From Methanococcus voltae (GTDB lineage Archaea > AGJL01 > Methanococci > Methanococcales > Methanococcaceae), in assembly GCF_024807655.1 (NCBI RefSeq), contig NZ_JANUCR010000007.1:1-50806 (forward strand): a stretch of 50,806 nucleotides of DNA, in the 5' to 3' direction. Below the pieces are notes generated by a model. That model made no database searches. It was not told where the DNA came from and saw only the letters and a program-made list of their open reading frames with translations. Positions 27,630 through 50,806 of this stretch are shown in pieces. The position numbers and the translations under genes were made by a program. Within the stretch, counting starts at the first letter, position 1. Every line of letters starts with the position of its first letter.

Positions 27630-29783
27630 ATGAAATTAAAATATGTTATAATACTTAGTCTCGTATTAATGTGTAGTTTAAACGTTATTTCTGCATATAA
27701 TGAAGATTGTCTCGTATGGGGTCAAAAATACGATTATATGGGAGACAATGATTATCCCGTATCATTAATTGTAAGTGATAATAATTCATATATCTTAGCT
27801 CATAATTCATATACGACACTAAATACATTACTCGTAAAATATGATAAAGACGGCAATTTACTATGGAATACTACTTATATGTCAAATCCGTCTCACGATA
27901 TCCCCAGGGGTATGTTAAAATATGGCGATTATATTTATGTTTCTGGAGATACATACAACAGTGTCAATAATTCAAAAGGTATAATGCTTTTAAAATATGA
28001 TTTAGACGGCAATTTAGTTTGGAATAGGTCATATAACAAATTTGAAAAAAATCAAGGTTTCTCAGGTTTCTCAACGTATGGCGATTATATTTATGTTATA
28101 GGTCAAAATGATAATGCCAGAGCAGATGGATTATTATTTCTTAAATATGATTTAGACGGCAATTTAGTTTTTAACAAGACTTATGATAACGAATCAAAAA
28201 GCGAAGGACTGGTTTCCTGTGGCGAATATAACAATGCATTTTATATCGTATATAATGAACAGGGGGATTCAAGTTCTAATTTTGGATTGGTAAAATATGA
28301 TTTAGACGGCAATTTACTTTGGAATAGGACGTACAATTATTCAAAGTATGACTGTGCAAAATGTCTTAAATTTTATGACAATGGTATTTATCTTATCGGG
28401 GAAGGTTATGCTACAAACTATGATACTGTAATCTTAAGATACGACATAGACGGCAATTTACTTTGGAATAAAACATATGATTATAAATCCATAGATAATG
28501 AACCTTTGCATACTGTAATGAGTAATGGTAAACTCTATATTTTGGGTTATGAGGATATTACCTCTCAAAATATACTAATATCCACTTTTGACTCAGATGG
28601 AAATTTACTATGGAATACAACCTACGATTATAGTGGTAGGTATGATGCAATAACCTCTGTATCGGCATATAATGATACGTTATATGTATTAGGTATCGGA
28701 ATCAATGAAAGTCAAGATATTATACTTTTAAAATATGATTCAAACGGAAATTTACTATGGGATAGGGCCTATGACTACCATGGAGAATATGATAGGGCAG
28801 TATCTATGGGCGTATACAATAATAATATTAACATAATAGGTTATGGGTATAATAGTTCTCAGAATACGATATTATTAAAATATGACGCAGACGGCAATTT
28901 ACTAAGTCATAATTCATATATGGTTGATTCATTAGATAATGAACCGAAAAGAATGGTAATACAAAACAATAATATATACGTATTGGGTCATATATGGAAC
29001 AATGACAATTATGATTTATATTTATTAAACTATATAAAAGATGAAATTGCACCAAATATTACAATAAACACGCCAAACGGAACTTTAAAAACAAACAATA
29101 TTGTAATAAACGTTAGTACAGATGATGGATTAGTCACATCTGGAATAAAAGAAGTAATTGCAAATGTAAACAATGAAAATATTACATTAAATAAAACAGG
29201 TAATTACTACACAGCATCTAAAACATTGAATGATGGAAATTATTTATTAAACATTACTGCAATAGACAATGCTAACAACAGTAATTCAACAAGTACAACA
29301 TTTACAATCGATACATACGTACCTTCATCAAATAGTCATCATAAAACGTTAGATGCTTCAGATTCAATTGAATCATCAAATATGAAGAGAACAGTTTCAG
29401 AATCAACAGTCGTTTACGGAAGTAATTTCGATAAACAGTTAGCTGAAGGTTTAAAAGAAAATATTTACCCAGATGACTATGAAATAACTGGGGATACTAT
29501 TATTGTAGGTGGACCAGTATCAAATAAAATAGCTGAGCAATATAATGATAGATTTGTAAAACCAGTTTCAAATAACTACCCTGGTGAAAATAGAGGTATT
29601 ATACAAATACTTAAAATACAAGATAATAGTGCTTCAGTAGTTCAAAGTTATAATGTAGTTTATATCGCTGGTTCCGATAGATTAGGAACTGAAGCTGCTT
29701 TGAAATACTTTGAAACACTTAAAGAATTACCTACAGAACCTATTATCGTAGAATGGACTTCCGAAGGGCCAGTTTTAGTTTAA
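27630..29783 (+). CDS. Secreted beta-propeller-repeat surface protein 1
   Basis: 717 residues from the ATG at 27630 (GAGGT upstream; the in-frame TTG at 27618 overlaps the RBS). A signal peptide (about 1-22) leads to roughly ten repeats of 40-50 residues with the theme LLKYDxDGNLLWNxTYDY, like SBBP beta-propeller repeats. One Ig-like domain follows (about 467-560), with IKEVIANVNNENITLNK. The C-terminal domain (about 567-717) has VVYGSN, IIVGGPVSNKIAEQYND, GENRGIIQIL and VVYIAGSDRLGTEAAL, resembling methanococcal S-layer C-terminal or CWB2-like domains. There is no C-terminal membrane segment. Many NxT/NxS sites suggest glycosylation. Likely S-layer associated; ligand unknown. Confidence 0.85.
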   Translation: MKLKYVIILSLVLMCSLNVISAYNEDCLVWGQKYDYMGDNDYPVSLIVSDNNSYILAHNSYTTLNTLLVKYDKDGNLLWNTTYMSNPSHDIPRGMLKYGDYIYVSGDTYNSVNNSKGIMLLKYDLDGNLVWNRSYNKFEKNQGFSGFSTYGDYIYVIGQNDNARADGLLFLKYDLDGNLVFNKTYDNESKSEGLVSCGEYNNAFYIVYNEQGDSSSNFGLVKYDLDGNLLWNRTYNYSKYDCAKCLKFYDNGIYLIGEGYATNYDTVILRYDIDGNLLWNKTYDYKSIDNEPLHTVMSNGKLYILGYEDITSQNILISTFDSDGNLLWNTTYDYSGRYDAITSVSAYNDTLYVLGIGINESQDIILLKYDSNGNLLWDRAYDYHGEYDRAVSMGVYNNNINIIGYGYNSSQNTILLKYDADGNLLSHNSYMVDSLDNEPKRMVIQNNNIYVLGHIWNNDNYDLYLLNYIKDEIAPNITINTPNGTLKTNNIVINVSTDDGLVTSGIKEVIANVNNENITLNKTGNYYTASKTLNDGNYLLNITAIDNANNSNSTSTTFTIDTYVPSSNSHHKTLDASDSIESSNMKRTVSESTVVYGSNFDKQLAEGLKENIYPDDYEITGDTIIVGGPVSNKIAEQYNDRFVKPVSNNYPGENRGIIQILKIQDNSASVVQSYNVVYIAGSDRLGTEAALKYFETLKELPTEPIIVEWTSEGPVLV
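27993..28316 (+). repeat. Exact 24-bp repeats at 150-bp spacing inside surface protein 1
   Basis: The same 24 bases, coding for KYDLDGNL, begin at 27993, 28143 and 28293, exactly 150 bases apart. Further diverged copies follow. The protein grew by duplication of 50-codon propeller units. Confidence 0.85.
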
Positions 29784-29840
29784 TACTCCCTTCCCTTTTT
29801 TGATGAAACCTTTCAGGTTTCATTTACTCTTTTGTTTATT
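29142..29840 (+). repeat. Inverted repeat arm A (Ig-like module, C-terminal domain, terminator)
   Basis: About 699 bases nearly identical to the reverse complement of 30212-30910. By eye I count about eight mismatches. The arm covers the last Ig-like module and C-terminal domain of surface protein 1, the stop codon and the hairpin/T-tract. The part from 29337, extended to 29851, also matches 48824-49338. Confidence 0.93.
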
Positions 29841-29850
29841 TGTTTATTTT
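29803..29850 (+). terminator. Hairpin plus T-tract terminator, cassette copy A
   Basis: ATGAAACCT-TTC-AGGTTTCAT (29803-29823) is a perfect 9-bp stem with a three-base loop, followed by TTACTCTTTTGTTTATTTG. It sits 20 bases after the stop codon. The form is like a bacterial intrinsic terminator, which is unusual beside the plain U-tracts elsewhere here. Confidence 0.7.
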
Positions 29851-30211
29851 ACAGTGAAATAGAATTTAACCTATATTTTTTAAATATTCATCTTTTTTTT
29901 TGAAAATACTAATTTTTATCGATAAATTTGCCGTATTTTTTGTTTTTTAAGAGTTCATAAATTTTAAGTACTGCTTTTTTATAATTTTTCTTAAATTCCA
30001 ATAGTGTTATTTATTCTAAAATTTCGATTAAAAATAAAGACAGGTATATTTAAAAAAATAATTTACAAATATTTAATTATAATTTGAGGTTATTATATGA
30101 TGTAAAAATATGTTTAGGGTACATCTACTAAAATTTTTAAATAATCTATGCCTTCTTTTTATATATTACGTAATTCCGAGTAAACATCGTTTTAAACTAT
30201 ATTAAAAAAGT

Positions 30212-30910
30212 AATAAACAAAAGAGTAAATGAAACCTGAAAGGTTTCATCAAAAAAGGGAAGGGAGTATTAAACTAAAACTGGCCCTTCGGAAGTCCATT
30301 CTACGATAATAGGTTCTGTAGGTAATTCTTCAAGTGTTTCAAAGTATTTCAAAGCAGCTTCAGTTCCTAATCTATCGGAACCAGCGATATAAACTACATT
30401 ATAACTTTGAACTACTGAAGCACTATTATCTTGTATTTTAAGTATTTGTATAATACCTCTATTTTCACCAGGATTCTCATTTGAAACTGGTTTTACAAAT
30501 CTATCATTATATTGCTCAGCTATTTTATTTGATACTGGTCCACCTACAATAATAGTATCCCCAGTTACTTCATAGTCATCTGGGTAAATATTTTCTTTTA
30601 AACCTTCAGCTAACTGTTTATCGAAATTACTTCCGTAAACGACTGTTGATTCTGAAACTGTTCTCTTCATATCTGATGATTCAATTGAATCTGAAGCATC
30701 TAACGTTTTATGATGACTATTTGATGAAGGTACGTATGTATCGATTGTAAATGTTGTACTTGTTGAATTACTGTTGTTAGCATTGTCTATTGCAGTAATG
30801 TTTAATAAATAATTTCCATCATTCAATGTTTTAGATGCTGTGTAGTAATTACCTGTTTTATTTAATGTAATATTTTCATTGTTTACATTTGCAATAACTT
30901 CTTTTATTCC
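30212..30910 (-). repeat. Inverted repeat arm B
   Basis: Minus-strand partner of 29142-29840. It encodes the last Ig-like module and C-terminal domain of surface protein 2, with stop and terminator. Differences from arm A are few. At one block of four changes it reads SNENP like the third copy, whereas arm A reads SNNYP. Confidence 0.93.
30229..30249 (-). terminator. Hairpin terminator, cassette copy B
   Basis: The same 9-bp stem and three-base loop as copy A, here on the minus strand, about 20 bases after the stop of surface protein 2. It is followed on that strand by TTACTCTTTTGTTTATT. Confidence 0.7.
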
Positions 30911-33745
30911 ACTTATGTTATCTGAAGCCATAACATTTATTGTAAAATCATTATTTCGTATGGTGCCTTGTGGGGTATTTATTAGAACTTGATAAGGTTT
31001 ATTCGTATCCACAGTAAATGTCTTAATACTCGAAACCTCTTTATTCCCTAATGTATCATTTGCGTATACTTTTAAAGTGTAGTTTCCGTCATTCAATGTT
31101 TTAGATGCTGTGTAGTAATTACCTGCTTTATTTAATGTAATATTTTCATTGTTTATATTTACAATTACTTTATCAACCATTGTTGAATCAATAACCGTTG
31201 CATTTATTGTTATATTACTAATATTGTAGATTTTAGATGACGGCGTAGTTATGTTGATACTTGGAGCAGTTGTATCCACTTTAAAGTTTACAGTACTTAT
31301 TTTGTAATTTCCAGCTAAATCGTATGCTTTTATTGCATAACTATAATTTCCAGTTGACAATGTTATAGGTGAGGTACTGTATGTGTTTCCACTTATATTT
31401 GTCATTGCGTAGTTAGTTCCGTTTAATTTAACGCTTACGTTTTTAATACCTAAATTATCATTAATTGTTGCATTTATTGTAAATCCGGTGTTTACTGTTG
31501 AATTATTAACTGGTTTTAAGTTTGTAATTGTTGGTTTAGTCGTATCTATTGTAATTGTAGTAGGTTTTGTAATTTGAGTATTCCCTAATGTATTAACTGC
31601 ATATACTGTTATATTATATTTATTTTCACCTAAAATTCCCGTAGTTCCTACATATTCATTATTATCTTTTATTAATGTAATGTTTTTATCTACAGAGTCT
31701 GATTTAATGTTTGCTATTGCTGAAGTGACATTTGAATCTGCTGTAACATTTAATGAAATATTGGATATGTTGAATATTGAATTATTTGTGGGTTTTACAA
31801 TTTCAATAGCAGGTTTGGTATCATCTACTGTGAAAGTAGATTCATTCGTATAGCTATTATTGTATAAATCAGTTGCAGTTATTTTTAATGTATAATTCCC
31901 CTTAGATAAATCCTTAAGCAATTTAGTGTATAAATTTTCATTATTTAAATCTTCAGTTAAATTAAATCTTTGTGTATTTGTTTCATTCGATAATGAAACG
32001 TTTATGATTGATTTTTCATTAACTAATACTTGTAAATTTGTTGAAACACCTATGGTTGAATTTTTCGCAGGTGTTATTGTTATTATTTTTGGAGCAGTTG
32101 TATCAACTTTAAATGTAGTTTCAGTTGTATTTACATTTGAAAGATTGTCTTTTGAATATATTTTTAAAGTATATGTTCCATCTGATAATGCTGTAGCATT
32201 ATATGTATAATAACTGTTATTTTTATTCATTGAATGGTTAGTATCATTTATAGTAGCAATTACTTCTTTTACCCCACTCATATCTGTGGTAGTGACGTTT
32301 ATTAAGATATTACTGATATTGTATGTTTTGTCTTTTATAGGACTGTTTATTATTATATTAGGTCCTTTTGTATCGAGTGCTTTTGGTAAATAATCGATAT
32401 TGTTTAAGCTCATTTGATATGGACTATCACAGAAACCGTCCTCATTATCGTCAGTAGCAGTTTCAGACCATCCTGTCCCGGTTGGAGTAAACCAGAAGTT
32501 ACCTCCACCGTTTTCCTTAGATGTATTCCAATAGCCTTTAGAATTATCCGGGAATACATTATTAGTATTGTTAAATATATTGTTGTATAGACTGTTATTG
32601 TATGAATCCGATATATACATACCTCTATCATTATTTATGAATGTAGAGTTTATAATTGTGTTATTATATGACATATACATATTAATGCCGTATAACCTAT
32701 TTGAATTTGCGGTGATATTTGAAATTATGTTATTGAATGAATGACCAATTTGTAATCCTATACCTATATTTGATAAGTTTAGGTTTTCTACATTCATATT
32801 CGTACAATTTCCAATAATAACCTGTCCTGCATCAGTTGGTACAGTTCCTGTATTGGCATTTGCGTAATAGTAAATTGGTTTACCATTTATAGTATTGTCT
32901 TTTATTAGTTGTGAACTCCAATATTGTATTAAAGAATTACCAGATACTAAAATACCTGTCGAAGTTAAGACGTTATTTTCAACAGTGTTATTTTTAGAGT
33001 TAGATACATAGATACCTGCAACACTTGTTGAATTTACAGTATTATCAAATATCCTGTTATCATCTGAGTCAAATGACATAATACCTGCATAACTGTTTGA
33101 ATTTACAGTATTGTTATATATTGAGTTATTATCTGAACGTTCTACATAGATACCATCACTGGCTAAATTTACAGTATTATTTAGTATTTTGATATTATCC
33201 GAATATTTCACGTAAATATTATATTGATTATTATTTGATGCATTATTGGTTACAATATTGTTATCGTCTGAATAATATGCGCAAATCCCCAAATTTTTAT
33301 TTGAATTTACAGTATTATTTGTAATATTGTTATTATTTGAATAATATACGTAAATCCCATAATTTTTATTTGAAGTTATATAACAATTTTTTATTAAACT
33401 GTTGCTAACGCCATTTAAATAAATACCATTATCAGTGAAATTTTTTATATGGATGTCTTTTATAACAACGTTAGAGTAACCATTATTAACAACGATACCT
33501 GTTGTACCTTGATTACTTCCATCTATTGTATATCCGTTTCCCTCGATTATTACATCGATAGAATCAATCTTTATAGCGTTTCCTGATGTAATAGTTAAAT
33601 TATCTGATAAATAATAAGTTCCCGGAGTTGTAATATTTATGGGACCTGTTATTTGTGTGTCAGCGTAAGCTGAATTAATTGCCAACAGAGAAATTAATAA
33701 CATTAAAAATGTTAAAATCCCTGTTTTATTATTTATAGTTCTCAT
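30269..33745 (-). CDS. Secreted NosD-like beta-helix protein with Ig-like repeats, surface protein 2
   Basis: 1158 residues from the ATG at 33745; GAGG lies upstream and overlaps the codon after an alternative ATG at 33757. A signal peptide ends near AYA-DTQ. A parallel beta-helix of NosD type (about 30-400) has many NNxITNNTVNSN rungs and ends with GGGNFWFTPTGTGW and DYLPKALDTKGP. About seven or eight Ig-like repeats follow, with TIDTTKPTI-type joints and NENITLNKxGNYYTASKTLNDGNY. The C-terminal domain is nearly identical to that of surface proteins 1 and 3. There is no terminal membrane segment. Probably a glycosylated S-layer-associated stalk; ligand unknown. It converges on surface protein 1. 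Confidence 0.86.
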   Translation of the reverse strand: MRTINNKTGILTFLMLLISLLAINSAYADTQITGPINITTPGTYYLSDNLTITSGNAIKIDSIDVIIEGNGYTIDGSNQGTTGIVVNNGYSNVVIKDIHIKNFTDNGIYLNGVSNSLIKNCYITSNKNYGIYVYYSNNNNITNNTVNSNKNLGICAYYSDDNNIVTNNASNNNQYNIYVKYSDNIKILNNTVNLASDGIYVERSDNNSIYNNTVNSNSYAGIMSFDSDDNRIFDNTVNSTSVAGIYVSNSKNNTVENNVLTSTGILVSGNSLIQYWSSQLIKDNTINGKPIYYYANANTGTVPTDAGQVIIGNCTNMNVENLNLSNIGIGLQIGHSFNNIISNITANSNRLYGINMYMSYNNTIINSTFINNDRGMYISDSYNNSLYNNIFNNTNNVFPDNSKGYWNTSKENGGGNFWFTPTGTGWSETATDDNEDGFCDSPYQMSLNNIDYLPKALDTKGPNIIINSPIKDKTYNISNILINVTTTDMSGVKEVIATINDTNHSMNKNNSYYTYNATALSDGTYTLKIYSKDNLSNVNTTETTFKVDTTAPKIITITPAKNSTIGVSTNLQVLVNEKSIINVSLSNETNTQRFNLTEDLNNENLYTKLLKDLSKGNYTLKITATDLYNNSYTNESTFTVDDTKPAIEIVKPTNNSIFNISNISLNVTADSNVTSAIANIKSDSVDKNITLIKDNNEYVGTTGILGENKYNITVYAVNTLGNTQITKPTTITIDTTKPTITNLKPVNNSTVNTGFTINATINDNLGIKNVSVKLNGTNYAMTNISGNTYSTSPITLSTGNYSYAIKAYDLAGNYKISTVNFKVDTTAPSINITTPSSKIYNISNITINATVIDSTMVDKVIVNINNENITLNKAGNYYTASKTLNDGNYTLKVYANDTLGNKEVSSIKTFTVDTNKPYQVLINTPQGTIRNNDFTINVMASDNISGIKEVIANVNNENITLNKTGNYYTASKTLNDGNYLLNITAIDNANNSNSTSTTFTIDTYVPSSNSHHKTLDASDSIESSDMKRTVSESTVVYGSNFDKQLAEGLKENIYPDDYEVTGDTIIVGGPVSNKIAEQYNDRFVKPVSNENPGENRGIIQILKIQDNSASVVQSYNVVYIAGSDRLGTEAALKYFETLEELPTEPIIVEWTSEGPVLV

Positions 33746-34194
33746 AATTTGCCTCATTTAATTATTAGTTTAAGAGTATTATTTGTTCAATTTATTTAGA
33801 ACATATTGTACTATATAATTATAAAATATTATATATTTTATAATTTAAAAAGATAATTTATGATTATGCGATAAATTTGAGTATAATTAAGCATATAAAA
33901 AGAAATATTTTAGACAATCATATAATGTCCTATACTACAATGAATATATACTTAGGGAGTATATAAACTTTTTTATATGGTTGGATACCTAATTAATAAA
34001 CTTATTACCTAATAATAAAACTTATAACTTATTTTTAATCATTTTTTGATAAATTATAATTTTTATTTTAGTATTATTTTAGTATATTTTGGTTTGTTAA
34101 TTGCGTACTTCACAGTCAAATTTTATTATTTTTTGCAATAATTATATAAATTAAGAATTCATATATGTAATTATAATTTACGATGTGAATACTC
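33746..34194. other. 449-base spacer, divergent promoters
   Basis: It holds the promoter side of surface protein 2. An inverted repeat ATATAC-TTAGGGA-GTATAT lies at 33946-33964, next to a TATA-like run. ATTATATAAATT near 34141-34152 is a likely TATA box for the small membrane-protein gene at 34195. No further gene was seen. Confidence 0.4.
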
Positions 34195-42135: not shown

Positions 42136-44043
42136 TTGTCAGCCGAAGAAATACTTAACGATTTAAAGGAAAATGTAATAAAAAGAGCTCCAGGAAACGC
42201 TGTAATTACTGACGTGGAATTTGAAGGTTCCGAAGTAGTAATTTATGCTAAAAACCCCGAACTATTTTCAAATAACTTCATAAAGGAGCTTGCTAAAGAT
42301 TTTAGAAAACGTATAGCCATAAGGCCAGACCCTTCAGTATTACTTGAACCCGATATCGCAAAAGAAAGAATTTTGAGAATCGTTCCAGACGATGCAGAAG
42401 TTGTAAATTGCATATTTGATGCTAATACTGGTGAGGTTATCATCGAATCAAAAAAACCTGGTTTGGTAATTGGTAAAGAAGGTAGTACATTGGAAGATAT
42501 TAAAAAAGAAATCCAATGGGCACCTAAACCTGTAAGAGCACCGCCTATTCCATCAGATACAATAAAGGCAATAAGGTCAACAATGTATCGGGAAAGAGCG
42601 GATGTAAAAGATATCCTTAGAAGAATCGGAAGAAGAATACACAGAGATGTTAAATTAAGAGATGATTGTTGGATTAGAACTTCATTTTTAGGCGGTAGCC
42701 GTGAAGTTGGTAGAACTTGTTTATACCACCAAACCCCTGAAAGCCGTATTATGATTGATTGCGGTATTAACGTAGGTATGGACGACGAAAAAGCATTCCC
42801 TCATTTTGATGCTCCAGAGTTTTCAATTGAGGAAATCGATGCTGTAGTAGTCACGCACGCTCACCTTGACCACTGTGGTTTTATCCCTGGTTTATTTAGA
42901 TACGGTTATGATGGTCCTGTTTACTGTACAAAACCTACAAGAGACTTAATGACCTTATTACAAAAGGATTATATAGATATTGCGGAAAAAGAAGGTAAAC
43001 CAGTACCTTATACATCAAGAGATGTAAAAAATGCAATAAAACATACAATACCATTGGATTATGGTGTTACAACAGATATTGCACCAGCTGTAAAACTTAC
43101 ATTGCATAACGCAGGGCATATTTTAGGTTCTGCAATTGCACACTGCCACATTGGTGATGGATTATATAACGTAGCATACACCGGCGATATTAAATTTGAA
43201 GCTTCAAGATTATTAGAACCGGCTGTTTGTCAATTCCCAAGACTTGAAACCCTTATTATGGAATCTACATATGGTGGATACGATGATGTACTGCCTGAAA
43301 GAGACGAAACAGAAAAAGAGCTATTAAAAGTTATTTCTGAAACTATTGCAAAAGGCGGTAAAGTAATTCTTCCAGTATTTGGTATTGGTAGGGCTCAGGA
43401 GTTAATGCTTGTACTTGAAGAAGGATATAATCAAGGAATTTTCAATGCGCCGGTATTCTTAGATGGTATGATTTGGGAAGCTACTGCAATACACACAGCT
43501 TACCCAGAATACTTATCAAAGAATATGAGAAACAGAATTTTCCACGAAGGAGACAATCCATTCTTATCAGAAGTATTTAAGAAAGTTAAAGACACCAAAG
43601 ACAGAAGAAACGTAATCGGTAGAGACGAACCTTGTATTATCTTAGCTACATCAGGTATGCTTACAGGTGGTCCGAGTGTTGAATACTTTAAAACACTTGC
43701 AGACGATGAGAAAAACGCCATCGTGTTTGTGGGATACCAGAGTGAAGGTACATTGGGTAGAAAAATCCAAAAAGGTTGGAAAGAAATACCTTTAATGGGT
43801 AAAAACGGAAAAACAAGAGCTATAAAAGTTAAATTATCTGTTCACACGCTTGAAGGATTTTCAGGACACTGCGATAGAAAGCAACTTATAAAATACCTTA
43901 GAAAATTAAAACCAATCCCAGATAAGATATTAACAATACACGGTGAAGCTTCCAAATGTATAGATTTAGCAAGCACTGCGTATAAATTATTTAAAAAAGA
44001 GACTAAAGCACCTATGAATTTAGATTCTATTAGATTAAGATAA
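42136..44043 (+). CDS. fttA: FttA/aCPSF1, KH-domain beta-CASP ribonuclease and termination factor
   Basis: Archaeal CPSF73 homolog that cuts nascent RNA at U-rich sites and terminates transcription. The 635-residue protein has two N-terminal KH domains (about 1-140; VIGKEG at 111-116), then a metallo-beta-lactamase domain with HAHLDHCG (241-248), HNAGHILGS and YTGDIKFE. The beta-CASP insert and the closing SVHTLEGFSGHCDRKQL and LTIHGEASKC follow. All metal ligands appear intact. The start is TTG at 42136 with GGAGGG six bases upstream. It stands alone after a long AT-rich gap. Confidence 0.96.
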   Translation: MSAEEILNDLKENVIKRAPGNAVITDVEFEGSEVVIYAKNPELFSNNFIKELAKDFRKRIAIRPDPSVLLEPDIAKERILRIVPDDAEVVNCIFDANTGEVIIESKKPGLVIGKEGSTLEDIKKEIQWAPKPVRAPPIPSDTIKAIRSTMYRERADVKDILRRIGRRIHRDVKLRDDCWIRTSFLGGSREVGRTCLYHQTPESRIMIDCGINVGMDDEKAFPHFDAPEFSIEEIDAVVVTHAHLDHCGFIPGLFRYGYDGPVYCTKPTRDLMTLLQKDYIDIAEKEGKPVPYTSRDVKNAIKHTIPLDYGVTTDIAPAVKLTLHNAGHILGSAIAHCHIGDGLYNVAYTGDIKFEASRLLEPAVCQFPRLETLIMESTYGGYDDVLPERDETEKELLKVISETIAKGGKVILPVFGIGRAQELMLVLEEGYNQGIFNAPVFLDGMIWEATAIHTAYPEYLSKNMRNRIFHEGDNPFLSEVFKKVKDTKDRRNVIGRDEPCIILATSGMLTGGPSVEYFKTLADDEKNAIVFVGYQSEGTLGRKIQKGWKEIPLMGKNGKTRAIKVKLSVHTLEGFSGHCDRKQLIKYLRKLKPIPDKILTIHGEASKCIDLASTAYKLFKKETKAPMNLDSIRLR

Positions 44044-45071: not shown

Positions 45072-45231
45072 CCCCCAATATAATTATTTATTTTATTTTA
45101 TATTATTTTTTACAAATTAGCAAATATTGTATAATTTTATACGATAAATTTTAAATATTACAGATTTTTTTTAAATATGTTTAGAGATTTTTGTTTTTTC
45201 AATGTTTTTCAATGTATTATTTGCTATCATT

Positions 45232-45264
45232 TACCAATATCTACCAAAAACTACCAAATTGGTA
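45232..45264 (+). promoter_or_regulatory. fic operator copy 1 (upstream of TATA)
   Basis: A 33-bp element with three TACCAA boxes and a final TTGGTA; TACCAAATTGGTA is an inverted repeat. It is identical to 45299-45331. It ends seven bases before the TATA box at 45271-45280, where it could block the general factors TFB/TBP. Confidence 0.8.
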
Positions 45265-45270
45265 GATAAG

Positions 45271-45280
45271 TATATACATA
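45271..45280 (+). promoter_or_regulatory. TATA box of fic
   Basis: TATATACATA lies between the two 33-bp operators. Archaeal spacing puts the transcription start near 45300, the first bases of operator copy 2. Confidence 0.6.
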
Positions 45281-45298
45281 ATAAACTTCATAACTTAC

Positions 45299-45331
45299 TA
45301 CCAATATCTACCAAAAACTACCAAATTGGTA
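45299..45331 (+). promoter_or_regulatory. fic operator copy 2 (over the start site)
   Basis: Perfect second copy of the 33-bp element, 67 bases from the first (start to start). It would cover the transcription start and block polymerase if bound. Confidence 0.8.
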
Positions 45332-45386
45332 ATTCGTAAGTTGTAATCAATAATGATACAAATATGTAATTTATTATGGTGAAATT

Positions 45387-46790
45387 ATGAAAATTCCCGA
45401 AAAACCTCCTAAAATATTAGATATATTGAATAATTTAAATTCTAATTCGGACAGTAATTCAAATTTTAACCTGCCACCCATACCAAATTTGTATAAAATG
45501 GGACACTATCTAAAATTAGTACTATCTGTAATCAATGGCGAAGATATAGATATTCCAAAAAAAGAAAAGGATATATTATTAAATGTAGATTATGTGCATT
45601 GGGAAGATTTAAAATATAAAAATATAAGCCTTGATAAAGAAGAACTTTGGCTTATATTACAAGCATTAAGAGCTTTTAAATTTCAGAATTTTAAAATAAA
45701 AGATTATGATTTTAAATATTGTTTAACAAACACCATACTAAAGAGAATACATAAAATAGATAAAGCAACTTTCGGAGAGATGAATGAAGGTCTTAAGAGT
45801 CTTAGTGAAAAATATAAACGAAAATATCTAATTAATTCATTACTTGAGGAGGCCATTGCGTCAAGTCAAATTGAAGGGGCGACAACCACTCGGAAAAAAG
45901 CTAAAGAAATGATACTCCAACAAAAAAAGCCGACAAACAACTCGGAAAAAATGATATACAACGGATATAATACGATGGAGTATATTTATAAGGAACTCTT
46001 AGAAGAAAAATTAACACCGGAACTTATATTAAAGCTCCATATGTTAATAACTGATGATACTCTGGAAAAAAAAGAAGATGAATTAAATTATCGAGACAAT
46101 GACGATATAATCGTGGGTGATAGCTTCGATACGAGTATAACTTATCATACGCCTCCGAAACACAATCAAGTGCCTGAATTAATGGAAGAATTTTGCAAAT
46201 TTGCAAATTCTGACGAAGACGGGTATTTTATACCGCCAATTATTAAAGGGATAATTTTACACTTTTTAATTGGGTACATACACCCATTTAACGATGGTAA
46301 TGGACGTACTGCAAGAGCCATATTTTATTGGTACGTACTTTCAAGAGGTTATTATGGATTTAGGTACACTGCAATTTCACGAATATTAAAGAATGCTAAA
46401 AAGAAATATGCAAAAGCTTATTTATATTCTGAAACTGACGAAAATGATTTAACATACTTTATAAATTATAATTTAGATGCTATTGAAAAATCAATCGATG
46501 AAATGAATAATTACATTTCAAAAAAAGAAATAGAACTTTTAGATTTTGAAAAACAATATTCAGAAAGTTCAGAAAATTTAAATTTGGATTTAAATTCAAG
46601 ACAATTAGAAATTTTAAAATATTTTTATAATAATCCTAAAAAGTACATTACAATTAAAGAAATTCAAAATATATTTGTCGTTGCTTACGATACTGCCAGA
46701 AATGATTTAGAGTTGCTCGTGAAAAATAACAAAATTATCAAACGTAAAAGCGGGAAGAGATTTGAATATACCGCACTGATGAATGATTAA
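45387..46790 (+). CDS. fic: Fic-domain protein (AMPylase family) with C-terminal winged helix
   Basis: Fic enzymes usually move AMP from ATP to a target hydroxyl. The 467-residue protein has the intact active site HPFNDGNGRTAR (299-310) and an inhibitory helix motif SSQIEG (159-164) placed N-terminally (class II), so activity is probably self-restrained. ITYHTPPKHNQVPELMEEF is the usual flap region. Residues about 415-467, with LNSRQLEILKYFY and VAYDTARNDLELLVKNNKI, form a winged helix-turn-helix likely to bind DNA. GGTGA precedes the ATG. Twin operators at its promoter suggest autoregulation. The target is unknown, and no obvious antitoxin gene is adjacent. Confidence 0.93.
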   Translation: MKIPEKPPKILDILNNLNSNSDSNSNFNLPPIPNLYKMGHYLKLVLSVINGEDIDIPKKEKDILLNVDYVHWEDLKYKNISLDKEELWLILQALRAFKFQNFKIKDYDFKYCLTNTILKRIHKIDKATFGEMNEGLKSLSEKYKRKYLINSLLEEAIASSQIEGATTTRKKAKEMILQQKKPTNNSEKMIYNGYNTMEYIYKELLEEKLTPELILKLHMLITDDTLEKKEDELNYRDNDDIIVGDSFDTSITYHTPPKHNQVPELMEEFCKFANSDEDGYFIPPIIKGIILHFLIGYIHPFNDGNGRTARAIFYWYVLSRGYYGFRYTAISRILKNAKKKYAKAYLYSETDENDLTYFINYNLDAIEKSIDEMNNYISKKEIELLDFEKQYSESSENLNLDLNSRQLEILKYFYNNPKKYITIKEIQNIFVVAYDTARNDLELLVKNNKIIKRKSGKRFEYTALMND

Positions 46791-47044: not shown

Positions 47045-49270
47045 ATGAAAATAAAATATGTAATTTTTACAATTCTTCTCTTGTTAGGTGGTATGTCTTG
47101 TGTTAATTCGGCCATATTGACACAGGATAGTCTTTTAGGGATAGAAAATTATAATTTTTCATTGTATTCCCTTATGGATAATTCAATGGTATTCGAAAAT
47201 GATACAATATATCTCGCCGGTGAAATAGATTCTGGGACGAGTGATGATATTATAATATATAAATGTTATAAAAATGGTTCCGTAATTTGGAATGTTTCTT
47301 ATGACTATATGGGTTATGATGATGCCCCTACCCATTTAATCGTACAAAACGATGAAATATATGTCATAGGAAATGGACGAAAAAGTGGCGGCCAAGATGT
47401 AATCGTAGTGAAATATGATACAGACGGTAATAAATTATGGAATAACTCTTATAGTTATGGTACGGCCTATGATTCAGCCCAAAAAGCTGTTTTAAAAGAT
47501 GGAAATTTATATGTAGGCGCATATGGTGCAGGTTCAACTTTTGACGTAGTTCTGTTAAACTATTATGCAAATGGTACTTTAATGTGGTCAAATTCTTATG
47601 ATTATAAATCTGACAAAGATTACCTAAAAGAGGTATTTGTAGATGACAATAAAAACTCATATGTAATCAGTAATTCAATTAATAAATCGGGATTCTCTGG
47701 AACTTACGATATTGTTTTGTTAAAATATAACGAAACAGGTAGTTTATTGTGGGAAAAAACTTACGATTATAATTTAGAAAGAGAATCAGTTACTTCCGCT
47801 AAGATGGTAAATAACAATATTTACATTTTGGGAGGTATAAAAAATTCAAAAGACTTATTACTTTTAAAATATGATTTAGATGGTAATAGATTATGGAATG
47901 CAAGTTATGATTACCTTATAGGTCAAGATTATCCAATATCTATGCATATAGACAGTGATGAAAATACATATGTATTAGGGCGTGGAACAAATACTACAAG
48001 AGATACATTACTTTTAAAATACAATAGTACTGGAAGTTTATTATGGAGTACATCTTATTTCACAAATATGTCCGATGATGGTTTAAAAACATCTATGATG
48101 GTATTGGGCGATAATATTTACATATTGGACGCTATTAAAAATAGTACCGCAAATAATAATATGTTATATTTATCCAATTATGATACGGAAACTGGAGCTA
48201 ATGATTGGAATACAACCTATACATTTAGTTCAAAAAACAATAAACCAGTGGCATTATGTTATAATCCTGGTAAAGTATGTGTACTTGCCCAATGTGCTGA
48301 TGAAAGTAATTATTATAAAATGGTATTTTTAGAATATACTACATCAGGTAATTTGATGTATAATAATTCTTATCCTTCTGAGACTATTTCAACAGGTAAT
48401 CCTAAAGAATTACATAATTATCAAAATGTAAAATATGTATTAGGGACTTCTTATTCCGCATTAGGTAGTAGTGTAAATTTACTAAGATATGGTGAAGATA
48501 AAATTGCCCCAACAATTAGCATTAATCATCCAACAAATGGGACTATTAACACTACAAGCGATAATACGAACGTTATAATAAATGCAACTGTGGAAGATGG
48601 CAGTACAATCTCTGAAGTTAAAGCTGAACTAAACGGAGTAAATGAATCGATGAATTTATTAAATGATTATTATATATTAAATAAAACATTAACTGAAGGA
48701 ACTTATTCTTTAAAGGTCTATGCAAAGGATGTATCAAGAAATATGGGAACTTCAGAATCTGTGGAATTCATTATAAAACGTAGTTCAAACAATGATAATG
48801 GCGGTACTACAACCACAACTACACATCATAAAACGTTAGATGCTTCAGATTCAATTGAATCATCAAATATGAAGAGAACAGTTTCAGAATCAACAGTCGT
48901 TTACGGAAGTAATTTCGATAAACAGTTAGCTGAATGTTTAAAAGAAAATATTTACCCAGATGACTATGAAATAACTGGGGATACTATTATTGTAGGTGGG
49001 CCAGTATCAAATAAAATAGCTGAGCAATATAATGATAGATTTGTAAAACCAGTTTCAAATGAGAATCCTGGTGAAAATAGAGGTATTATACAAATACTTA
49101 AAATACAAGATAATAGTGCTTCAGTAGTTCAAAGTTATAATGTAGTTTATATCGCTGGTTCCGATAGATTAGGAACTGAAGCTGCTTTGAAATACTTTGA
49201 AACACTTAAAGAATTACCTACAGAACCTATTATCGTAGAATGGACTTCCGAAGGACCAGTTTTAGTTTAA
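47045..49270 (+). CDS. Secreted beta-propeller-repeat surface protein 3
   Basis: 741 residues; GAGGTG lies nine bases before the ATG. A signal peptide (about 1-22) leads to about ten propeller-type repeats (LLKYDLDGNRLWNASYDY theme) related to surface protein 1 but clearly diverged. One Ig-like module (TISINHPTNGTINTTSDN onward), a Thr-rich hinge (TTTTTT near 594-599) and the shared C-terminal domain follow. In this copy a Gly in QLAEGLKEN has become Cys (QLAECLKEN). There is no C-terminal membrane anchor. Many Asn-X-Ser/Thr sites occur. It is followed 194 bases later by a NosD-like gene, as protein 1 is paired with protein 2. Confidence 0.85.
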   Translation: MKIKYVIFTILLLLGGMSCVNSAILTQDSLLGIENYNFSLYSLMDNSMVFENDTIYLAGEIDSGTSDDIIIYKCYKNGSVIWNVSYDYMGYDDAPTHLIVQNDEIYVIGNGRKSGGQDVIVVKYDTDGNKLWNNSYSYGTAYDSAQKAVLKDGNLYVGAYGAGSTFDVVLLNYYANGTLMWSNSYDYKSDKDYLKEVFVDDNKNSYVISNSINKSGFSGTYDIVLLKYNETGSLLWEKTYDYNLERESVTSAKMVNNNIYILGGIKNSKDLLLLKYDLDGNRLWNASYDYLIGQDYPISMHIDSDENTYVLGRGTNTTRDTLLLKYNSTGSLLWSTSYFTNMSDDGLKTSMMVLGDNIYILDAIKNSTANNNMLYLSNYDTETGANDWNTTYTFSSKNNKPVALCYNPGKVCVLAQCADESNYYKMVFLEYTTSGNLMYNNSYPSETISTGNPKELHNYQNVKYVLGTSYSALGSSVNLLRYGEDKIAPTISINHPTNGTINTTSDNTNVIINATVEDGSTISEVKAELNGVNESMNLLNDYYILNKTLTEGTYSLKVYAKDVSRNMGTSESVEFIIKRSSNNDNGGTTTTTTHHKTLDASDSIESSNMKRTVSESTVVYGSNFDKQLAECLKENIYPDDYEITGDTIIVGGPVSNKIAEQYNDRFVKPVSNENPGENRGIIQILKIQDNSASVVQSYNVVYIAGSDRLGTEAALKYFETLKELPTEPIIVEWTSEGPVLV

Positions 49271-49338
49271 TACTCCCTTCCCTTTTTTGATGAAACCTTT
49301 CAGGTTTCATTTACTCTTTTGTTTATTTGTTTATTTTA
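48824..49338 (+). repeat. C-terminal-domain/terminator cassette, copy C
   Basis: 515 bases nearly identical to 29337-29851 (about seven mismatches by eye), beginning at the HHKTLD codons and ending in the T-rich tract after the hairpin. Sequence outside these borders diverges at once. Confidence 0.93.
49290..49310 (+). terminator. Hairpin terminator, cassette copy C
   Basis: The same perfect 9-bp stem and TTC loop as copies A and B, 20 bases after the stop and followed by TTACTCTTTTGTTTATTTG. Confidence 0.7.
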
Positions 49339-49464: not shown

Positions 49465-50806
49465 ATGAGCAAAAATTATAAAATAATATTTTTTATATTA
49501 TTAACAATAACAATGTTGGCAGTTAATACGGCGTATGCGGATAATGCAATAACTACGCCCACCACAATTAATATGCCAGGTAAATATTATTTAGATAATA
49601 ATATAACGGTTTCCGGCGGTCATATTATTAATATCGTATGTGATAATGTGTCAATCGATGGAAAAGGCTTTACCATTAAAGATAGTGATAGTGTTAGTGT
49701 TTTAGATTATGGTATTTATGTATCCAATGTGAAAAATACGACAATAAAAAACTTTAATATATCTAATATTGGTTATGGTGTTAGAATCGAAGGTTCTGAG
49801 GATACTACACTTATTAATAATACTATAAGTTCAAATTACCGTAATGTCCGTATAGTGTCTTCAAAAAATTCAACCCTTATCAACAATACGGTAAATTTAG
49901 GTACTAATGGAGGTATATCAATAGAAGATTCACCTAATACCAGTATTATAGATAATAACGTAATTTCAAACAGCGATTGGGGTATATCCATATCTGGAAC
50001 TTCTGATGATTTGAATATCTTAAATAATAATGTAAGTTCAAATGGATATGGTATTAAATTGCAAAACCTACATAATGCAAATATTACGAATAATACTATA
50101 CTTTTAAATCAAAATCCAGGTATTGACTTATATCGAGTGTATAATTTAAATATTACAGACAATACTATAAATTTAAATAAAGATAGTGGTATTGTTATTG
50201 CTGAAATAACGAATATATCCATTATAAAAAATACTATAAATTCAAATACAGTCGATGGTATTCATATGTACCAGGTAATCGACACAATTATTATTGCAGA
50301 CAATACTATAAATTTAAATAAAGATAATGGTATTTACTTACAAAGTTTGGATAGGTCAAATATTAGTAATAATATTTTAAATTCAAATACTGATTATGGT
50401 ATTCATTTACTAGGCTCCCATAATAATTCATTATTAAACAATACCCTGAATTTGAACAAATTTGGTATGTATTTATCTGATTCGGATAATTCAAATATTC
50501 GTAATAATAATATGAATTCAAATACTGATTATGGTATTCAGTTGTTAAATTCCGAAAATAATTCGATTATAAAAAATATATTTAATAATACGAATAATAT
50601 ACATATAGTTTCGAGTATTTTAAATAACTTAAATACAACAAAAGCAAACGGTGGGGGAAACTTATGGTTTAAACCTGATGGTACCGGTTGGTCTGAAACT
50701 CATAACGATATAAACGGCGATGGTTTTTGTGATGAAATATATAACATCTCATTAGGAAATGTAGATTACTTACCATTAGTATTTGATACTCAAGGTCCTA
50801 TATTAA
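49465..50806 (+). CDS. Secreted NosD-like beta-helix protein, surface protein 4 (3' end outside window)
   Basis: The frame opens at ATG 49465 with AAGGAGGAG upstream and stays open to the window edge (447 codons). A signal peptide (MSKNYKIIFFILLTITMLAV, cleavage after NTAYA) is followed by PGKYYLDNNITVSGG and many NNTINLNKDNGI-type beta-helix rungs. The close, GGGNLWFKPDGTGWSE, then DGFCDEIYNISLGNVDYLP, matches the helix end of surface protein 2 step for step. Ig-like repeats and the shared C-terminal domain probably follow beyond the edge. Confidence 0.85.
   Translation, partial: MSKNYKIIFFILLTITMLAVNTAYADNAITTPTTINMPGKYYLDNNITVSGGHIINIVCDNVSIDGKGFTIKDSDSVSVLDYGIYVSNVKNTTIKNFNISNIGYGVRIEGSEDTTLINNTISSNYRNVRIVSSKNSTLINNTVNLGTNGGISIEDSPNTSIIDNNVISNSDWGISISGTSDDLNILNNNVSSNGYGIKLQNLHNANITNNTILLNQNPGIDLYRVYNLNITDNTINLNKDSGIVIAEITNISIIKNTINSNTVDGIHMYQVIDTIIIADNTINLNKDNGIYLQSLDRSNISNNILNSNTDYGIHLLGSHNNSLLNNTLNLNKFGMYLSDSDNSNIRNNNMNSNTDYGIQLLNSENNSIIKNIFNNTNNIHIVSSILNNLNTTKANGGGNLWFKPDGTGWSETHNDINGDGFCDEIYNISLGNVDYLPLVFDTQGPIL

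What the first reader, a model, noticed from the sequence alone, without database searches (positions are those of the whole stretch)
48824..49338. A C-terminal domain and its terminator travel together as a cassette
Three surface genes share about 515 bases at 98-99% identity that cover the C-terminal domain, the stop, a hairpin and a T-tract, while their N-terminal parts are unrelated or strongly diverged. Sequence identity stops sharply at both borders. This suggests a system in which different exposed domains are joined to one common S-layer-binding end by recombination, a possible route to surface variation.
Basis: partly seen in the sequence, partly recalled or inferred. Interest (0 to 1): 0.75.

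Follow-up and report, generated by a model that had tools for sequence, protein, structure and literature searches.

The report
Shared anchor end of archaeal surface proteins
In a methane-making archaeon, several otherwise different surface proteins carry a nearly identical tail that looks like the cell-anchoring part of the S-layer protein, and comparison with related species indicates that the cell keeps copying this tail (with its stop signal and a hairpin) from gene to gene while the exposed parts differ.

Summary
Three genes (ends at 29783 +, 30269 -, 49270 +) share 504-515 bp at 98.6-98.8% identity (two share 700 bp at 98.9%), covering the last 148 codons, stop, hairpin and T-rich tract. 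Both borders are sharp. Two more copies sit at the broken ends of contig C10. Synonymous divergence is 0.01-0.04 inside and 1.1-2.0 outside. The same pattern occurs independently in other Methanococcus genomes, including two single-contig ones (100% and 99.3% identical C-domains behind 78% and 32% N-parts). Other members of the same domain family diverge normally along the whole gene. One pair of loci has been homogenised separately in two species, and one gene has exchanged its C-terminal third for that of a paralogue. The best explanation is segmental gene conversion (concerted evolution) of a shared C-terminal module, with occasional module swaps. The domain resembles the anchoring domain of the M. 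voltae S-layer protein (PDB 9FSA). Programmed surface variation has no support: no silent cassettes and no shared promoter were found. A new observation in two related genomes is stacked stop-plus-hairpin tails with truncated old gene ends downstream, always joined exactly at the hairpin's end.

The parts
27630..29783 (+). Gene A: signal peptide, repeats of the KYDxDGNxLWN type (beta-propeller-like), Ig-like repeat, C-terminal S_layer_C-type domain
29337..29851 (+). Cassette copy A: C-terminal domain, stop, hairpin, T-rich tract
30269..33757 (-). Gene B: NosD-like beta-helix, several Ig-like repeats, same C-terminal domain
30212..30715 (-). Cassette copy B
29141..29840 (+). Left arm of the 700-bp inverted repeat between the 3' ends of A and B (98.9%); includes the last Ig-like repeat
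30212..30911 (-). Right arm of the 700-bp inverted repeat
47045..49270 (+). Gene C: N-part homologous to A at 31% amino-acid identity, Ig-like domain, same C-terminal domain
48824..49338 (+). Cassette copy C
49289..49311 (+). 10-bp-stem hairpin followed by a T-rich tract; in seven Methanococcus genomes its TTGATGAARCYTTT core is otherwise almost confined to the 3' ends of this gene family
49465..50806 (+). Gene D: NosD-like beta-helix surface protein cut by the contig end; its N-part is 61% identical to a G002 gene that carries the cassette, so D probably carries it too (inferred, its 3' end is not in the assembly)

Best explanation
The repeat is a shared C-terminal anchor module (about 148 codons plus stop, hairpin and T-rich 3' tract) of a family of Methanococcus surface proteins. 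Homologous recombination between the copies, mainly non-reciprocal (gene conversion), keeps overwriting the module in one gene with that of another. The left border lies where the genes stop being similar enough to recombine (the Ser/Thr/Asn/His-rich linker or an upstream Ig-like repeat), the right border just past the hairpin and T-tract. When tract or crossover ends fall further upstream, or flanks are exchanged, an N-part becomes joined to another C-part. Shown: species-specific homogenisation, sharp borders, mosaic copies, a C-part exchange at a fixed locus. Inferred: conversion rather than crossover for A, B and C themselves; that the domain anchors the proteins in or under the S-layer; that the pattern has a benefit.
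For: (1) dS inside the domain 0.01-0.04 among A, B, C, against 1.13-1.96 in the N-parts; housekeeping dS to the next species is 0.72-0.87. (2) Independent repeats: G004 pair 99.3% C-domain against 32% amino-acid identity N; G005 pair 100% against 78%; G002 pair 99.8% against 62%. G004 and G005 are single contigs. (3) The loci neighbouring G000:C1:31981 / G002:C5:168266 and G000:C2:1340 / G002:C3:166214 are syntenic; C-domains are 95.5% identical within G000 and 95.1% within G002 (99.75% over 405 bp), but 77-80% between the species. (4) G006:C1:504870-508958 is the syntenic orthologue of G000:C1:31978-35241 over its N-part (59%), but its last 520 residues are 85% identical to a gene at another locus in G002. 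(5) Paralogue versus orthologue: G002 C9_5974 has C-domain dS 0.27 to a G002 paralogue and 0.59 to its G006 orthologue, while the N-part dS is 1.17 and 0.45. (6) PHI-type test for mosaicism in 11 G002 copies: p = 0.001, the floor of 1000 permutations. (7) Left borders mostly cluster at 430-460 bp before the stop. (8) Domain: Pfam S_layer_C above cut-off; AlphaFold2 model pLDDT 92.8; best PDB match by sequence and by fold is 9FSA.
Against: Only one genome per species is available, so conversion is inferred from paralogues and not seen between strains. The AU test does not reject the G002-G006 orthologue pair as a clade on the short C-domain (p 0.12). A, B and C have no clear orthologues with known C-ends at the same positions, so for them duplication of the module onto new N-parts cannot be separated from conversion. 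The fold match to 9FSA is moderate (TM 0.49-0.53, 19% identity).
Confidence: 0.78

Rival explanations
1. Mobile 3' cassette: the module moves as a unit, with the palindromic hairpin as recombination site or element end, and is inserted behind new N-parts.
For: The hairpin core is almost confined to these gene ends. In G002 and G006 the old gene ends lie directly behind the hairpin, joined at one exact donor base but at several recipient positions. B combines the module with an N-part of a different fold.
Against: Left borders vary (-126 to -2229 bp, mostly -430 to -460) and follow homology; two loci are fixed and homogenised in parallel; G004 and G005 show the same homogenisation without the hairpin; no integrase or transposase was seen bound to the module; no relative in plasmids or viral contigs.
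Confidence: 0.12
2. Programmed surface variation: N-parts are switched onto the common end to change what is displayed.
For: Formally the mirror image of Campylobacter fetus sap genes; a C-part exchange exists in G006.
Against: No silent or promoterless cassette in this genome; each readable gene is complete, and 150-bp upstream regions of A to D are 43-50% alike, no more than AT-rich DNA gives. One truncated 75-codon ORF in G003 is the only candidate remnant.
Confidence: 0.06
3. Recent duplication of whole genes followed by fast divergence of the exposed parts.
For: A and C have homologous N-parts.
Against: N-part dS is 1.1-2.0 while C-domain dS is 0.01-0.04; B has another fold.
Confidence: 0.01
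4. RNA-templated spread: reverse-transcribed 3' ends of transcripts recombine into other genes, which would explain why the right border is the end of the terminator.
For: The right border follows the T-tract or hairpin in the genomes examined.
Against: No reverse transcriptase (PF00078) in any of seven Methanococcus genomes; the control genome Methanosarcina acetivorans is positive.
Confidence: 0.01
5. Assembly artefact or strong purifying selection.
For: The draft genome breaks at these repeats.
Against: Copies differ by several SNPs; the same pattern in single-contig genomes G004 and G005; synonymous sites and the 3' untranslated part are equally identical.
Confidence: 0.02

Closest known systems
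Concerted evolution of mtrA-1/mtrA-2 in Methanococcales and Methanomicrobiales (PMC4632066)
   Same: Same order of archaea; one domain of two paralogues is homogenised by long-lasting gene conversion while another part of the protein, gained by domain shuffling, stays different.
   Different: Two copies of a methyltransferase subunit in one operon, not a dispersed surface family; the abstract does not report the 3' non-coding part as part of the tract.
Campylobacter fetus sap S-layer genes (PMC3887049; the conserved 5' part from general knowledge)
   Same: A family of S-layer-related genes shares one nearly identical anchor-coding part and differs in the exposed part; recombination acts between them.
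   Different: There the shared part is the 5' end and a single promoter expresses one gene; here the shared part is the 3' end and each gene has its own upstream region.
Methanococcus voltae S-layer protein anchor domain, PDB 9FSA (PMC11410804)
   Same: Best sequence-profile and fold match of the cassette domain; same Pfam family S_layer_C.
   Different: In the S-layer protein the anchor is split (residues 24-75 and 484-576) around the lattice part; here it is one uninterrupted C-terminal domain behind varied N-parts.
Gene conversion between genome copies in polyploid archaea (PMC11276520, Haloferax)
   Same: Shows that archaea carry out efficient gene conversion.
   Different: Acts between copies of one locus on different chromosomes, not between paralogous loci.

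Membership tests
Pfam S_layer_C (PF05124) | Profile match above the curated cut-off | tested here: met
   28.2 and 29.7 bits against 23.9 for proteins C and A, profile positions 98/110-171 only
Pfam S_layer_C (PF05124) | Split domain wrapped around S_layer_N as in the main S-layer protein | tested here: not met
   The genome's S-layer protein has S_layer_N inside S_layer_C; cassette proteins have no S_layer_N
Concerted evolution by gene conversion | Paralogues within a genome more alike than orthologues between genomes, restricted to part of the gene | tested here: met
Concerted evolution by gene conversion | Mosaic copies | tested here: met
   PHI-type test p 0.001 in G002, 94 informative sites
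Concerted evolution by gene conversion | Non-reciprocal transfer observed directly between strains | not testable with these tools
   One genome per species held
Antigenic-variation system (sap, vls, pilE type) | Silent donor cassettes or a single expression site | tested here: not met
   All readable copies are full genes with unrelated upstream regions; copies at contig ends could not be read
Antigenic-variation system (sap, vls, pilE type) | Switching in a clonal population | not testable with these tools
   needs culture and long reads
Mobile gene cassette or insertion element | Defined ends and empty-site evidence at both ends | tested here: inconclusive
   Right end is fixed at the hairpin in G002 and G006, left end is not

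The most novel reading that the evidence does not exclude
The palindromic hairpin behind the stop codon sets the right end of the transfer: new 3' ends (tail, stop, hairpin) are copied in front of the old one, which is left behind truncated. Repeated rounds give the stacks seen in G002 and G006, a one-sided 3'-end replacement process for which I found no description.
Probability: 0.2. Interest if true: 0.72.

Novelty: new variant of a known kind. Interest (0 to 1): 0.52.

Why it matters
It gives a dispersed family of archaeal surface proteins in which one anchor module is kept uniform within each species while the exposed parts differ, so conversion, module exchange and selection can be separated at synonymous sites. 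It also explains why draft Methanococcus and Methanothermococcus genomes break at these genes. The stacked 3' ends are countable footprints of past transfers and offer a way to study how conversion tracts end in archaea.

Tried and rejected
Plasmid search with the cassette: no match. Single-protein scan of genome contigs: none; with an alignment, 20 loci in Methanothermococcus. Viral contigs: none. Reverse transcriptase: absent in the genus. Hairpin as a general mobile element: rejected, because nearly all exact hits of its core in the genus lie behind these genes (the three exceptions read TTGATGAAGCTTTT, two in G004 and one in G006, and were not examined). AU test of one orthologue pair on the C-domain: not decisive (p 0.12). 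The reverse test on the N-parts could not be run because G006 has one row only. No paper on this family was found in eight literature searches, which cover open-access papers only.

Full report
The window is the whole of contig C7 (50,806 bp) of an 18-contig draft genome of 1.86 Mb. The genus is most likely Methanococcus: relative G004 has the length known for M. vannielii SB (1,720,048 bp; the length of SB is from general knowledge), and this genome's S-layer protein is almost identical to the M. voltae S-layer chain 9FSA in the region aligned. The species name itself was not available.

Observation. Copies A (29337-29851 +), B (30212-30715 -) and C (48824-49338 +) are 98.6-98.8% identical over 504-515 bp; A and B share 700 bp at 98.9% as an inverted repeat with 371 bp between its arms. 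The identity begins at codons HHKTLDASDS and ends behind a 10-bp-stem hairpin and T-rich tract. In 40-bp steps identity jumps from 35% to 100% on the left and falls to 20-42% within 80 bp of the stop on the right. Both ends of contig C10 consist of pieces of the same cassette, so at least five copies exist and the assembly breaks at them. Gene D (49465 to the contig end) is probably a further member, but its 3' end is missing.

What the proteins are. N-parts: A and C carry KYDxDGNxLWN repeats (delta-60 or beta-propeller-like) and are 31% identical; B carries a NosD-like beta-helix and Ig-like repeats. The C-terminal domain matches Pfam S_layer_C above its cut-off. An AlphaFold2 model (15 sequences, pLDDT 92.8) finds as its only strong PDB match 9FSA (E 1.8e-4, probability 1.00, TM 0.49-0.53), also the best sequence-profile hit (E 0.006). 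9FSA is the dimerising anchor domain of the M. voltae S-layer protein, residues 24-75 and 484-576 (PMC11410804). In the S-layer protein that domain is split around the lattice part; in the cassette proteins it is continuous. So 'S-layer-binding end' should read 'S-layer-anchor-like end'; binding is not shown.

Is it recombination? Synonymous divergence in the C-domain is 0.01-0.04 among A, B and C, against 1.13-1.96 in the alignable N-parts; orthologous housekeeping genes of the nearest relatives G002 and G006 are at 0.72-0.87. Purifying selection or recent whole-gene duplication cannot give this. The same pattern recurs in G002 (99.8% C, 62% N), G004 (99.3% C, 32% N) and G005 (100% C, 78% N); G004 and G005 are single contigs, so it is not an assembly effect. 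As control, five other S_layer_C genes of G000 with orthologues in G002 (and, for four of them, in G006) have C-domain and N-part dS in the same range, with no peak, and come out as orthologue groups with full support.

Conversion at fixed places. Loci around G000:C1:31981 / G002:C5:168266 and G000:C2:1340 / G002:C3:166214 are syntenic. Their C-domains are 95.5% identical within G000 and 95.1% within G002 (99.75% over 405 bp), yet 77-80% between species: the same pair of loci was homogenised twice independently. At the first locus G006 keeps an orthologous N-part (59% to G000), but its last 520 residues are 85% identical to the gene at the other locus in G002, a C-part exchange with conserved flanks. 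The eleven G002 copies are mosaic (PHI-type test p 0.001). An orthologue pair (G002 C9_5974, G006 C7_4365) is closer in the N-part (dS 0.45) than G002 C9_5974 is to a paralogue (1.17), and the reverse in the C-domain (0.59 against 0.27). The AU test on that short domain does not reject the orthologue clade (p 0.12), so this last point rests on distances.

Synteny between the window and G002 is collinear for 26 kb (about 25 genes) and ends exactly at gene A, so these genes also mark rearrangement points.

Borders. Left borders lie mostly 430-460 bp before the stop, some 640-830, one 2229; they follow where homology ends. Right borders lie 20-80 bp behind the stop in most pairs, at the T-tract or hairpin. 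No reverse transcriptase exists in the seven Methanococcus genomes, which argues against an RNA intermediate.

Stacked tails (new). In G002 and G006 the core TTGATGAAACTTTT occurs only at 3' ends of this family, as far as the hits were examined. Behind the hairpin many genes have a second, sometimes third, truncated gene end: in G002 C6_118064, C8_6032, C8_9040, C8_13900 and C11_6322 it starts at position -78 of the coding end, in others at -40, -33 or -31. The donor side of the junction is always the same base, the end of the hairpin. The G002 gene C4_148840, syntenic with G006 C2_172683, has no hairpin and no duplication. I read these as traces of repeated one-sided 3'-end replacement. Template switching or breakage at the palindrome would explain the fixed end, but neither is shown. 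In this window's genome the hairpin is present in all five copies, without stacks.

Function. The best guess is that the module anchors varied surface proteins in the S-layer region, that recombination keeps it uniform within each species, and that new N-part/C-part combinations arise as by-products. Programmed variation has no support: full genes throughout the readable copies, unrelated upstream regions, no silent copies.

Novelty. Segmental gene conversion is known, also in this order (mtrA, PMC4632066), and the C. fetus sap genes are a mirror-image surface example (PMC3887049). No description of this family was found in the open-access literature.

Noticed in passing
G002 C6:117858-118056, C8:6038-6300, C8:9048-9190, C8:13757-13893, C11:6176-6317; G006 C2:172686-172760, C7:4320-4359: Stacked stop-plus-hairpin tails with truncated old gene ends downstream; the junction is always at the last base of the hairpin.
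   Followed up: partly
G002 C9:17327-17476 and C9:5820-5969, also C8:6139-6290: An element of about 120 bp sits inside the hairpin loop of some copies; related sequence lies elsewhere in the same intergenic regions. Possibly a miniature mobile element.
   Followed up: no
window 42136-44043 (+): Gene for FttA, the archaeal transcription termination factor (KH_TffA, Beta-Casp, RMMBL); it lies near gene C, probably by chance.
   Followed up: partly
window 45387-46790 (+): Fic-domain protein with a DeoR-like helix-turn-helix, next to gene C; an orthologue in G002 also lies beside a cassette gene.
   Followed up: no
window 45180-45345 (+): Repeated CTACCAATATCTACCAAAAACTACCAAATTGGTA motif upstream of the Fic gene, perhaps an operator.
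   Followed up: no
window 27.6-35 kb against G002 C8 and C9: Gene-order collinearity with G002 ends exactly at the cassette genes; they look like rearrangement points.
   Followed up: partly
L150 and L151 (Methanothermococcus sp. S013_52), first 327 bp: Two contigs begin in a 98.5% identical piece of the same domain, so the homogenisation probably extends to Methanothermococcus.
   Followed up: partly
G000 C10:58-95, C10:37163-37200, C7:29854-29891: A 38-bp sequence behind the cassette is shared exactly by three of five copies and found nowhere else in the genome; the flank itself has been exchanged in part.
   Followed up: yes
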